The notes under the pieces were generated by a model. The model worked only from the letters and a program-made list of their open reading frames with translations. It searched no databases and had not been told where the DNA came from. Positions 1,182-64,000 of a DNA stretch of 64,000 bases are shown here, one piece after another. The stretch's first letter is position 1. Every line of letters starts with the position of its first letter. The DNA is from Brucella cytisi. GTDB lineage: Bacteria; Pseudomonadota; Alphaproteobacteria; Rhizobiales; Rhizobiaceae. Position numbers and translations under genes: made by a program. Where the stretch lies: positions 434,001 to 498,000 of the forward strand of contig JAAVLQ010000001.1 of NCBI GenBank assembly GCA_012103075.1. The letters are read 5' to 3'.

Positions 1182-2412
1182 ATGTATGATTTCGCCGTAG
1201 CCGGGACTGGCTGGGCTTCGCAGCGCGGTGGCTGCATGTGATTACCGCGATTGCGTGGATCGGCTCGTCCTTTTACTTCATTGCGCTCGACCTCGGTCTT
1301 CGCCAGCGTCCCGGCTTGCCGGTTGGTGCGCACGGAGAGGAATGGCAGGTCCATGGTGGTGGCTTCTATCACATCCAGAAATATCTGGTTGCGCCAGCCG
1401 AAATGCCGGAGCACCTGACCGGTTCAAATGGGAATCCTACGCCACGTGGCTGTCGGGTTTCACGCTGCTCTGCATCGTCTACTATGCCGGCGCTGATCTC
1501 TACCTGATCGATCCGAACGTGCTTGATGTTTCCGTACCGGTCGCCATCGCGATTTCGATCGGTTCGCTGGCATTCGGTTGGATCGCCTATAACACCATCT
1601 GCAAGCTGATGCTCGGCAAGAGCGATACGCTCCTGATGGTCATCCTTTACTGTATTCTGGTGGTGGTGGCACGGGGTTATACGCATCTTTTACAGGACGT
1701 GCGGCCTTCCTGCATCTCGGTGCCTTCACGGCAACGATCATGTCTGCCAACGTGTTCATGATCATCATCCCGAACCAGAAGATCGTGGTCGCGGATCTGA
1801 TTGCAGGCCGCAAGCCGGACCCGAAATACGGCAAGATCGCCAAGCAGCGTTCGACGCACAACAACTATTTGACGCTGCCTGTTCTGTTCCTGATGCTGTC
1901 GAACCACTATCCGCTGGCTTTCGGAACGCAGTTCAATTGGATCATCGCCTCGCTGGTGTTCCTGATGGGCGTCACAATCCGCCACTGGTTCAATACACAG
2001 CATGCCCGCAAGGGTAGCCCGACCGGACTGGCTGGTAACGGTGATCCTGTTCATCATCATCATCTGGCTGTCGACGGTGCCGAAGATTCTCACTGGTGAG
2101 CCGGAAGAACAGAAGGTCTCGGCATTGCAGCAGTCTTTCATCTCGGACCCGCACTTTGAAAAGTGCGGGATACCGTTATGGGGCGCTGCGCCATGTGCCA
2201 CGCCAAGGAACCCGGCTGGGAAGGCATCATTGCGCCGCCGAAGGGCGTCGTGCTGGACACCGACCGGGATATCGCAGCGCATGCGCGTGAAATCTATTTG
2301 CAGGCAGGCCGTTCGCATGCCATGCCGCCCGCCAATGTCACCGGCGTGAGTGAGGAAGAACGCCAGCTTCTTGCCTCCCCGGTACCAGTCTGCCACGCAG
2401 GGCCCGAAATAA
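1182..2412 (+). CDS. puuD: PuuD-type membrane urate hydroxylase with C-terminal cytochrome c domain
   Basis: Bacterial urate oxidase of the PuuD family: urate to 5-hydroxyisourate, with electrons passed to a fused cytochrome c. Reassembled across frames it has about 410 residues. The N-terminal part has many membrane segments (e.g. WLHVITAIAWIGSSFYFIAL, the stretch around IVYYAGADLYLID, LVTVILFIIIIWLS). The C-terminal domain carries the haem motif CAMCH near 2190 and an axial-Met region (SHAMPPANVTG). The ATG at 1182 follows GGGAG. Frame breaks occur near 1205, 1425, 1685, 2025, 2165 and 2385, several clearly one missing G or one extra C, while conserved residues are kept. I read them as sequencing errors. 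It is followed after 14 bases by guanine deaminase. Confidence 0.85.
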
Positions 2413-2426
2413 GGACCACCACTAAA

Positions 2427-3732
2427 ATGACCAAGCTTCTGATCCGCGGCCGTGTGCTGACCTTTCGTGACGAGCCGCAGAGCCTCGATGACAATACTGC
2501 TTATCGCTATATCGAAGACGGCGCTGTTCTTGTCGAAGATGGCCGCATCCTGCGCCGGGAGACTATGCTGAAGTCAGTGCCGAGGCTGGTAGCGACGTCA
2601 ATGTCGCCGACCATCGCCCGCACCTGATTCTGCCCGGTTTCATCGATACGCATATCCATTATCCGCAGACGCAGGTAGTCGCTTCCTACGCAGCCAATCT
2701 GCTGGAGTGGCTCAACACCTATACGTTCGTCGCTGAACAGAAATTCGCCGACGAGCAGCATGCGGAATTCATTGCGGAGCGCTTCCTAGACGAGCTGATT
2801 CGCCACGGCACCACCACGGCGGTTGCTTATTGCTCTGTGCATCCACAGAGCGTCGATGCCTATTTCCGCGCCTCACAACATCGCAACATGCGCATGCTCG
2901 GTGGCAAGGTAATGATGGATCGCAATGCGCCGCCAGCACTCTGTGACACGGCACAGTCCGGTTATGACGATACGAAGGCGCTGATTGCGCGCTGGCAGGG
3001 CAAGGGCCGCCTTGATTATGTGATCACGCCGCGTTTTGCCATTACGTCCACGCCGGAGCAGCTTGAGGCAAGCCGGGCGCTTGTCCGTGAGCATCCCGGC
3101 AGCTACATCCAGACGCATCTTTCGGAAAATCACGACGAAATCTCTTTCACCAAGTCGCTTTACCCGCAAGCGCCGGATTATCTTGGCATTTACGAGCATT
3201 ACGGCCTGTTAGGCGACAAAACTCTGCTCGGACACTCGATCCACCACGGAACCACGCGAAGTGCGCGTCATGGCGGAAACCGGCTCGGTGGCAGTCTTCT
3301 GCCCGACCTCCAACCTGTTCCTCGGTTCGGGCCTTTTCGACCGCGACCGCCTGAAAGCGTCAGGCGTGCGTATGGCGGTGGCGACCGATGTCGGTGGCGG
3401 CACAAGTTTCTCCATGCTGCGCACTATGGATGAGGGGCTACAAGGTCCTCCAGCTGCGCGAACAGCGTCTGAACCCGTTCCAGTCCTTCTACATGATGAC
3501 GCTGGGCAATGCCCGTGCGCTGTTGATGGAAGACAAGATCGGTACCCTCGATGAGGGCACGGAAGCAGATATCGTGGTGCTGGATTCATCGGCCACATCG
3601 CCAATGCGGCTTCGCATGGCGGCTGGCGCGACGCTGGAGCAGGAACTGTTCCTGTTGCAGACGCTGGGCGATGACCGTGCCATCGCCGAAACCTATGTGG
3701 CCGGGAAGCCGCTCAAGGCCGAACTGGCCTGA
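2427..3732 (+). CDS. guaD: Guanine deaminase
   Basis: Amidohydrolase that converts guanine to xanthine and ammonia in the cytoplasm. About 434 residues after correction. The metal motif HxH is in PGFIDTHIHYPQTQ (near 2640), the typical EFxEQHAxF-like region follows (VAEQKFADEQHAEF), then HGTTTA, the HLSEN metal histidine region (near 3115), H in LLGHSIH, and ATDVGGGTSFSML close to the catalytic Asp. The start ATG 2427 lies 14 bases after the puuD stop. Breaks near 2562, 3243 and 3435. Xanthine dehydrogenase, which would join this step to urate, is not in the window. Confidence 0.87.
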
Positions 3733-61851: not shown

Positions 61852-61856
61852 AGAAC

Positions 61857-64000
61857 ATGCCTGATTTGTTGCTCGAACTCTTTTCCGAAGAAATTCCCGC
61901 TCGCATGCAGCGCAAGGCTGCCGGTGATCTGAAAAAGATGATTACCGATGGTCTGGTGGAGGCTGGCCTTACCTATGAAGCTGCGACCCCTTATTGGACG
62001 CCACGTCGTCTGACGCTTGATATTCGCGGTCTCACCGTGCGTTCCAAGGACGTGCATGAAGACATCAAGGGCCCATCGGTCACAGCACCGGAACAGGCCA
62101 TTCAAGGATTTCTGCGCAAGGCCGGTCTGACGGATGTAGCCCAAGCCCATATCCACTCCGATCCGAAGAAGGGTGATTTCTACGTCGCCCATCTGACGAA
62201 GCCGGGCCGTGCAGCTGAAGAGATCGTTGCCGAATTGGTGCCGCAGACTATCCGCAATTTCCCATGGCCGAAATCCATGCGCTGGGGTGCTGCTTCCGCT
62301 AGGCCGGGTTCGCTTCGTTGGGTACGCCCGCTACAGTCGATCCTCTGCACCTTCGGTCCTGAAACCGAGGAAACCGTGGTTATCGATTTCGATGTCGATG
62401 GCATCAAGTCGGGCAATGTCACCTATGGCCATCGTTTCCTGAGCGACGGTCAGGCGATCAAGGTGCGCCGCTTCGAGGATTATGTCGAAAAGCTCGAAAA
62501 GGCTTTCGTGGTTCTAGATGCCGAGCGCCGCAAGGAAATCATTTCGCAGGATGCGCATAATCTCGCCTTCGCTTCCGGCCTTGAGCTGGTCGAAGACGAT
62601 GGACTTCTGGAAGAAGTGTCCGGTCTGGTCGAATGGCCGGTGGTGCTGATGGGCGAGTTCGAGCAAGAATTCCCGGCCATTCCGCCGGAAGTCATTCGCC
62701 TCACTATCCGCGCCAATCAGAAGTGCTTCGTCACCCGCAAAGGGGCGAAACCGAAGCGCTTTCCAACCGCTTCATTCTGGTGTCGAACATTGCGGCCCGC
62801 GATGGCGGCACGGAAATCGCCTATGGCAACGGCAAGGTCGTGCGCGCACGCCTGTCGGATGCGCTCTATTTCTGGCACACCGATCAGCATGATCTGCCCG
62901 ACCTCGACAAGCTTGCCGCTTCGGCGGAAAAGTTCGGTCTTGAGCTGAAAAAGCCGCTCGATCAGCGCATGGCGCGTCTGGATGCACTGAATGTGACCTT
63001 CCATGCCAAGCTGGGCACGCAAGGCGCACGCATTGAACGCATTCGCGAACTGGCTGCGCAGATTGCGCCGCTGGTGGGTGCCGATCCGAAGCTTGCAGCC
63101 CGTGCCGCAGTTTTAGCCAAAGCCGATCTGACCACCGAAGTTGTCGGAGAGTTCCCCGAGCTTCAGGGCGCGATGGGTCGCAAATATGCGTTGCTTCAGG
63201 GCGAAGATGAAGCCGTCGCCGCTGCGATTGAAGAACACTACAAGCCGCAAGGTCCATCTGACTTTGTGCCAAAGAACCCTGTTTCGGTTGCCGTTGCGCT
63301 TGCCGACAAGCTCGACACGCTGGTCGGCTTCTGGGCGATCGACGAAAAGCCTACCGGTTCGAAGGACCCGTTTGCTCTGCGCCGTGCGGCACTGGGCGTG
63401 ATCCGACTCCTGCTGTCGCAGGAATGGAAGTTCCCGCTGCTTCCGCTCTTCCGCTCGGCGTTTGCCGCGCTGAAAGAAGGTCAGGTCCAGCGCAAGCTGC
63501 GCGAATTTGAAGCCAAGCTTGCTGCGGAAAACTCCGGTGATGTTGACGGCGAACAGGACGTCGACAACGCATTGGCCAGCTATGAAAAGCAGGCTCGCGC
63601 CGAGGCGGAGGCATCGTCCGAGCCGTTGCTGGTCGATCTTTTGTCGTTCCTCCATGACCGTTTCAAGGTGCATCTGAAGGAAGAGGGCGCACGCTACGAC
63701 GCCATCGATGCCGTGCTGACGCCGGATGCCGACAATCTGCTTCTGGTTGCGCGTCGACTGGAAGCGCTGATCGTCTTCATCAATGAAGAAGATGGCAAAA
63801 ACCTTCTGGCCGGTGCCAAGCGCGCCGCCAATATTCTCGCTGCAGAAGAGAAGAAGGGTACGAAGGTTGCAGACAGCGTGAGCGCTTCTCTTCTTCGCGA
63901 AGCGGAAGAAAAGGCGCTGTTCGAAGCTGTCACTCTGGCTTCGCAAGATGCCGAGGCGGCAATTGCCCGTGAAGATTTCAACGGTGCGATGCTGGCACTC
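61857..64000 (+). CDS. glyS: Glycyl-tRNA synthetase beta subunit (truncated by window end)
   Basis: MPDLLLELFSEEIPARMQRKAAGDLKKMI is the family start; GPSVTAPEQAIQGFLRKAGL, HRFLSDGQAIKVRRFEDYVEKLE, RANQKCFVTRK follow. One break near 62747 (AAAGGGGCGAAACC) before the ALSNRFILVSNIAARDGG region; from there the frame is open to the last base. At least 714 residues are present; the C-terminal anticodon-binding end is cut off. Confidence 0.94.

What the first reader, a model, noticed from the sequence alone, without database searches (positions are those of the whole stretch)
1182..64000. At least 60 single-base frame breaks across about 40 genes, best explained as sequencing error
Breaks hit essential single-copy genes (der, atpB, atpE, atpF, ispE, ispB, glyQ, glyS, ccoN) as often as dispensable ones. 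Nearly all are one base lost or gained at short homopolymers or dinucleotide repeats, and the protein resumes with conserved residues intact. True gene decay would not spare motifs and would avoid essential genes. A naive annotation would call about half of this window pseudogenes or give false starts and ends.
Basis: partly seen in the sequence, partly recalled or inferred. Interest (0 to 1): 0.75.

Follow-up and report, generated by a model that had tools for sequence, protein, structure and literature searches.

The report
Nanopore-type assembly errors, partly methylation-driven
The many broken genes in this stretch of a bacterium's genome are almost certainly sequencing mistakes, and the same assembly has also lost nearly every copy of one short DNA motif that the bacterium's own methylating enzymes probably mark, so the error pattern hints at which bases are methylated.

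Summary
Of 58 genes open in three relatives, 54 are testable in the window and 34 are broken (51 breaks); relatives held out of the gene choice have 4 of 58 and 4 of 59 broken. I find 66 window-private indels in 55.3 kb, 52 of one base, 62 frame-changing, about as dense in tested genes as elsewhere (1.14 and 1.48 per kb). This is sequencing error, not decay.

Only 20 of 66 indels sit at homopolymers of 3 or more; 11 sit at CCWGG, 35 at neither. CCWGG is absent from the window (66-75 per 64 kb in relatives). Of 190 aligned CCWGG sites of relative G009 none is kept (107 of 245 in controls), alone among 512 five-base words. Changes at the motif's centre ignore codon position.

The genome carries two Dcm-Vsr-EcoRII-type loci; four relatives show no close Dcm match. 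Sampled stretches of seven other Dcm carriers keep CCWGG. Best explanation: a nanopore-type consensus failing at homopolymers and at 5-methylcytosine in CCWGG, an error class known since 2019 (PMC6591954, passages). Platform data were not available.

The parts
1..64000 (.). Whole window: 66 private indels in 55.3 kb of triple-aligned sequence; CCWGG absent
1173..2408 (+). Unnamed gene, broken (3 frame changes, 2 stops)
2427..3729 (+). Guanine deaminase gene, broken (2 frame changes in the tested part, 2427-3365)
   Evidence: footprint
4973..6669 (+). Glyoxylate carboligase gene, broken (1 frame change)
6712..7523 (+). Hydroxypyruvate isomerase-type gene, broken (1 frame change)
7569..8448 (+). 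2-hydroxy-3-oxopropionate reductase gene, broken (2 frame changes)
10023..12284 (-). Copper-type P-type ATPase gene, broken (2 frame changes, 1 stop)
12779..14324 (-). ccoG gene, broken (2 frame changes)
14521..15421 (-). ccoP gene, broken (1 frame change)
16508..17710 (-). COX1 open frame (ccoN by neighbours); the domain match covers only profile positions 189-405 of 436 in this frame
18141..19269 (-). Sensor histidine kinase gene, broken (2 frame changes in the tested part)
20781..22089 (+). DsbD-type gene, broken (1 frame change in the tested part)
23678..25140 (-). Aldehyde dehydrogenase family gene, broken (1 frame change)
33023..33981 (+). SbmA-type transporter gene, broken (1 frame change in the tested part)
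36016..37463 (+). der (GTPase), broken (1 frame change)
38961..40275 (+). Hsp70-like chaperone gene, broken (1 frame change)
45529..46337 (+). atpB, broken (1 frame change)
47983..48541 (-). Lrp-type regulator gene, broken (1 frame change, 1 stop)
49251..49983 (-). Ribonuclease HII gene, broken (2 frame changes)
53803..54672 (-). SppA-type peptidase gene, broken (2 frame changes)
57610..58699 (+). Polyprenyl diphosphate synthase (IspB-type) gene, broken (2 frame changes)
58918..60697 (+). TPR-repeat protein gene, broken (1 frame change)
60902..61842 (+). glyQ, broken (1 frame change)
61857..64000 (+). glyS, broken (1 frame change; the gene runs off the window)

Best explanation
The breaks are consensus errors of a long-read, most likely nanopore-only, assembly of a Brucella (Ochrobactrum-group) isolate. 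Two processes are visible. (1) Length errors at homopolymers plus a scatter of one-base errors. (2) A systematic failure at CCWGG: no aligned site survives, and where the flanks of the motif are conserved the central base pair is replaced or dropped. The second is best explained by native DNA carrying 5-methylcytosine at CCWGG, laid down by Dcm-type enzymes of two EcoRII-type restriction-modification loci on contig 3, read by a base caller not trained on it. Shown: the breaks, their coding-blindness, the motif-specific loss of CCWGG, the Dcm-Vsr-EcoRII genes. Inferred: the platform, the methyl group itself, and that these enzymes make it.
For: Breaks in 34 of 54 genes against 4 of 58 and 4 of 59 in held-out relatives. 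Private indel rate 1.14 per kb in tested genes and 1.48 per kb elsewhere (p = 0.41). One-base deletions per 1000 runs, in 173 kb of this genome (window and 12 of the 20 sampled stretches searched) aligned to G009, rise from 1.0-1.6 at single bases to 43-104 at runs of 5 and 165-254 at runs of 6; runs of 7 have one case. CCWGG: 0 in the window, 14 in 400 kb of the same genome, 554 in 400 kb of G009; 0 of 190 kept against 107 of 245, unique among 512 five-mers. Centre changes in genes, where the flanks are conserved: codon positions 8/5/6, 13 of 19 nonsynonymous, while other substitutions are 4342 of 5568 at position 3 (p about 2e-5); in G005, G008 and G011 the 2, 6 and 9 centre changes are 16 of 17 synonymous. 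11 of 66 private indels lie at CCWGG against 21 of 2683 random positions (p 6e-11). Dcm-like, Vsr and EcoRII-C genes in this genome. Sampled stretches of seven Dcm carriers keep CCWGG at 54-293 per 100 kb. Completeness 85.78 and contamination 6.38, against completeness 98-100 in 15 of 17 same-genus relatives. Wick 2019 (PMC6591954, passages): ONT base callers fail at CCAGG/CCTGG Dcm sites, then at homopolymers.
Against: No reads or platform metadata were available. 35 of 66 private indels are at neither homopolymers of 3 or more nor CCWGG. 12 of 66 have the window's length in G005 as well, and 4 of those 12 are not at runs of 3 or more, so a few may be real or systematic. 14 CCWGG remain in 400 kb. 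Natural private one-base indels exist at 0.14-0.37 per kb. EcoRII-C matches, some near other C5 methyltransferase genes, also occur in G005 and G009, which keep CCWGG; those methyltransferases are not close to Dcm. Specificity of the two Dcm-like enzymes rests on similarity and on the footprint itself. The Dcm carriers used as controls were sampled in 10-80 kb each, and their platforms are unknown to me.
Confidence: 0.95

Rival explanations
1. Genuine pseudogenisation: the lineage is losing genes by one-base indels.
For: Real frame breaks would look like this in any single gene; 12 of 66 private indels have the same length in G005.
Against: Breaks hit essential genes, are about as dense outside the tested genes as inside, and come with a motif-specific loss of CCWGG. 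Other substitutions in the same genes still show purifying selection (4342 of 5568 at codon position 3).
Confidence: 0.02
2. Real loss of CCWGG by mutation or restriction avoidance, independent of sequencing (5-methylcytosine deamination, or pressure from EcoRII).
For: The genome does carry EcoRII-type loci, and CCWGG stands at only 34-40% of a Markov expectation in G005, G008, G009 and G011 too, so the genus already avoids it.
Against: Deamination changes the cytosine, not the centre (recalled mechanism); here the centre changes. Centre changes ignore codon position, unlike those in relatives. G002, G014, G016, three rhizobial plasmid stretches and an E. coli K-12 stretch, all with Dcm-like and Vsr genes, keep CCWGG (G002 is lowest at 54 per 100 kb). 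0 of 190 kept at about 88% DNA identity.
Confidence: 0.02
3. Long-read error without any methylation effect (for example PacBio CLR at low depth); the CCWGG loss has another technical cause such as a polishing model.
For: G005 has a like rate of breaks (33 of 55 genes) with normal CCWGG and no close Dcm match, so most breaks need no methylation.
Against: The CCWGG loss is specific to the one genome of the first five compared that has Dcm-like genes, and the motif is the published Dcm error site.
Confidence: 0.08
4. Programmed frameshifting or transcript slippage across many genes.
For: None found.
Against: No recurrent slip motif: of 120 isolated-base deletions against G009 the top context is CCAGG with 15, the next 4. 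G008 and G011 read the same genes in one frame (by choice of the set; held-out tests 4 of 58 and 4 of 59 broken).
Confidence: 0.005

Closest known systems
Dcm-site and homopolymer consensus errors of nanopore assemblies (Wick et al. 2019, PMC6591954; passages read)
   Same: Errors concentrated in CCAGG/CCTGG and then in homopolymers, in native DNA of a Dcm+ strain.
   Different: There Klebsiella with known truth; here an alphaproteobacterium, inferred from relatives without reads.
Modification-mediated errors in Listeria (Chiou et al. 2023, PMC10687267; passages read)
   Same: Lineage-specific methyltransferase, motif-specific consensus errors, visible against relatives.
   Different: Motifs there GCAGC and GCTGG, errors counted as mismatches, and checked with repeat sequencing and whole-genome amplification.
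False pseudogenes in nanopore-only genomes (Homopolish, PMC8011154; passages read)
   Same: Indels, mainly at homopolymers, shift frames and inflate pseudogene counts.
   Different: The words Dcm and methyl do not occur in its main text; the motif-specific part is not its subject.

Membership tests
Uncorrected nanopore-type consensus | One-base indels dominate and break frames | tested here: met
   52 of 66 private indels are one base, 62 of 66 frame-changing
Uncorrected nanopore-type consensus | Error rate rises with homopolymer length | tested here: met
   up to runs of six;
Uncorrected nanopore-type consensus | Errors blind to coding | tested here: met
   1.14 against 1.48 per kb, p = 0.41; codon positions of motif-centre changes 8/5/6
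Uncorrected nanopore-type consensus | Failure at Dcm motif in a Dcm+ strain | tested here: met
   0 of 190 CCWGG kept; Dcm-like genes
Uncorrected nanopore-type consensus | Platform and read data | not testable with these tools
   genome held without name or metadata
EcoRII-type (CCWGG) restriction-modification locus | Dcm-like C5 methyltransferase | tested here: met
   54% identity over residues 165-458 of E. coli Dcm, another piece in another frame
EcoRII-type (CCWGG) restriction-modification locus | Neighbouring Vsr and EcoRII-C endonuclease genes | tested here: met
   (the short piece L162:303-953 alone gave no Pfam match)
EcoRII-type (CCWGG) restriction-modification locus | Methylates the inner cytosine of CCWGG | not testable with these tools
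   inferred from the error footprint only
Genuine pseudogenes | Breaks spare genes under selection | tested here: not met
   der, glyQ, glyS, atpB broken
Programmed frameshifting | Conserved slip signal and the same frame change in relatives | tested here: not met
   the 58 genes are open in G008, G009 and G011; no common context

The most novel reading that the evidence does not exclude
The erased motif is a readable methylation footprint: from the assembly alone, it says that CCWGG is nearly fully methylated in this isolate and that at least one of two EcoRII-type loci, one of them recently acquired, is active, although both methyltransferase genes look frame-broken in the same assembly. The same test (which short word is missing against relatives) could be run over public long-read assemblies to assign active motifs without raw signal.
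Probability: 0.85. Interest if true: 0.4.

Novelty: already known. Interest (0 to 1): 0.25.

Why it matters
Naive annotation would take 34 of the 54 testable genes here for pseudogenes or split genes, and the CCWGG failure adds false amino-acid changes that no frame check would reveal (13 of 19 tested centre changes). Against G009 the shortfall is about 135 CCWGG sites per 100 kb, which would scale to some 7,900 over 5.87 Mb (my extrapolation). Such an assembly can mislead pan-genome, pseudogene and phylogenetic work. The footprint also gives indirect evidence of an active methyltransferase.

Tried and rejected
First gene set: picked the longest open frame, which let antisense shadow frames in (the ATP synthase region showed it). 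It gave 33 of 46 broken; one search replaces it, with genes chosen by third-position substitution bias. T50 and T51 map to nearly the same place and are both counted (33 of 53 without one). Held-out controls on the old set gave 2 of 38 and 6 of 46 broken. (codon positions on the old set) is replaced. One search used a wrong motif length and stopped with an error; one search repeats it correctly.

The share of frame-changing indels alone does not separate error from evolution: 62 of 66 in the window, 11 of 15, 16 of 21 and 25 of 28 in controls. Neighbourhood of GANTC: 4 of 66 indels against 1.6 expected (sd 1.3), not convincing; GATC and GGCC not enriched. An AGTG/CACT excess in the window is not there in the 400 kb sample: 200 and 197 per 100 kb against 194 and 190 in G009. 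rRNA copies as an internal control: RF00177 found nothing in any of three genomes, so no use. Paper searches for this assembly (0, 3 and 5 papers listed) showed none that I could tie to it; of these I saw passages of PMC6342446 (its genomes are Illumina or hybrid) and only listings of the others.
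Full report
What the window is. The window is bases 434001-498000 of contig 1 of a 5.87 Mb, 3-contig genome with completeness 85.78 and contamination 6.38. The closest named relatives of one of its genes are Brucella of the former Ochrobactrum group; among 12 named loci compared, the best is B. pseudintermedia at 86.3% over 3.3 kb. The stretch is collinear, in pieces of about 80-94% identity, with G005, G008, G009 and G011 of the same genus. G008, G009 and G011 are 99-100% complete; G005 is 69% complete.

Why it is error and not decay. 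The rate is alike inside tested genes (52 in 45.8 kb, 1.14 per kb) and elsewhere (14 in 9.5 kb, 1.48 per kb; p = 0.41), and 48 of the 52 in genes change frame. Breaks fall on genes as a uniform rate predicts: 20 unbroken seen, 23.4 expected. Genes held to be essential (recalled) are hit: der, glyQ, glyS, a polyprenyl diphosphate synthase, atpB. The same genes still show purifying selection in their ordinary substitutions, 4342 of 5568 at codon position 3. One-base deletions rise with run length, from 1.6 (A/T) and 1.0 (G/C) per 1000 single bases to 43 and 104 per 1000 runs of five and 254 and 165 per 1000 runs of six; there is one case at runs of seven. G008 and G011 show one deletion each at A/T runs of five (12-13 per 1000) and none elsewhere at five or more.

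CCWGG does not occur in the window; syntenic stretches of the relatives have 66-75 per 64 kb. In 20 stretches of 20 kb over all three contigs of this genome there are 14, against 554 in 400 kb of G009 and 398 in 340 kb of G005, and CCSGG is in excess (318 against 225 per 100 kb). In aligned sequence none of 190 CCWGG sites of G009 is kept, against 107 of 245 in G005, G008 and G011 pooled; among 512 five-base words this one stands alone (z -8.8, next -3.8). In genes, 32 sites whose flanks also differ were set aside; of the other 24, the centre is changed in 19 and lost in 5, kept in none. The 19 changes fall on codon positions 8/5/6 and 13 are nonsynonymous (p about 2e-5 against other substitutions). 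In G005, G008 and G011 the centre is kept in 31, 28 and 22 and changed in 2, 6 and 9, and 16 of those 17 changes are at position 3; G005 has one loss. So the change is blind to the code, unlike ordinary substitutions in these genes. Of the 66 private indels, 11 lie at CCWGG, against 21 of 2683 random positions, 20 at homopolymers of three or more, 35 at neither.

A probable cause. The genome holds two Dcm-like methyltransferase genes on contig 3, each beside a vsr gene and an EcoRII-C endonuclease gene, plus a third EcoRII-C gene. E. coli Dcm finds no close match among the C5 methyltransferases of G005, G009 and G011 (only a 21-40% match in G009), and G008 has none. EcoRII-C matches alone do occur in G005 and G009, so that domain is not specific to Dcm carriers. 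Dcm methylates the inner cytosine of CCWGG and EcoRII cuts that site (established knowledge, recalled). Nanopore base callers with default models failed at Dcm sites, about 70% of consensus errors in a Dcm+ Klebsiella for the then current versions, then at homopolymers (Wick 2019, PMC6591954, passages); a later paper sees room for improvement in calling methylated C (PMC8486125, passages). Having Dcm does not itself remove CCWGG: sampled stretches of G002, G014 and G016 with Dcm-like and Vsr genes, three rhizobial plasmid stretches and an E. coli K-12 stretch hold 54-293 per 100 kb. The first EcoRII-type island here is close to plasmid DNA of Neorhizobium petrolearium (94.3% over 5.8 kb). Its endonuclease pieces are 98-99% identical in protein but lie in three frames, vsr (90-93%) in two, and the methyltransferase, open end to end at 86%, has a stretch of its catalytic domain in another frame. 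The second locus has its methyltransferase in several frames. Eight CCWGG sites of the Neorhizobium copy and 15 of an Agrobacterium copy are aligned and none is kept. So the assembly shows the methyltransferase genes as broken and at the same time the likely footprint of their activity, which argues that those breaks, too, are not real.

What remains open. Platform and reads were not available. About half of the indels (35 of 66) have no clear context. Twelve of 66 private indels have the same length in G005, six of the twelve at runs of five or six and four at no run; shared systematic error or a few true indels could explain them. G005 shows that a like number of breaks arises without any CCWGG effect: its private indels are 67 losses to 5 gains, and the word CCCCC/GGGGG is rare in it (9.1 against 57 per 100 kb in G009 and 32 here).

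Novelty. Motif-specific errors from untrained methylation are described (PMC6591954 and PMC10687267, passages), as are false pseudogenes in nanopore genomes (PMC8011154, passages; PMC12007338, listing only). I could tie no paper to this assembly (seen as listings, and passages of one); on EcoRII, Dcm, nanopore and assembly errors listed three papers, not read. The case is a clear example of a known artefact, with a useful by-product: the missing word points to an active methyltransferase.

Noticed in passing
L097-L100, L145-L161 (G005): A second same-genus assembly has frame breaks at a like rate (33 of 55 genes), private indels strongly biased to losses (67 to 5) and few C/G runs of five, but normal CCWGG: probably a different long-read error profile.
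   Followed up: partly
L216 (G000:C3:797001-806000): EcoRII-type locus with an endonuclease 98-99% identical in protein to one on a Neorhizobium petrolearium plasmid: a likely recent horizontal transfer among Hyphomicrobiales.
   Followed up: partly
L217 and L218 (G000:C3:131001-140000, 770001-779000): A second, more distant Dcm-Vsr-EcoRII locus and a third EcoRII-C gene in the same genome.
   Followed up: partly
window 46773-47390 and 47480-47881: Two ATP-synthase B-type genes in a row; the second shows only part of its domain in one frame.
   Followed up: no
window, 12 of 66 private indels: Indels where G005 has the window's length, half of them at runs of five or six: possible shared systematic error in two assemblies.
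   Followed up: partly
L089-L104: CCWGG stands at only 34-40% of a Markov expectation in G005, G008, G009 and G011: the genus seems to avoid it even without a close Dcm match.
   Followed up: no
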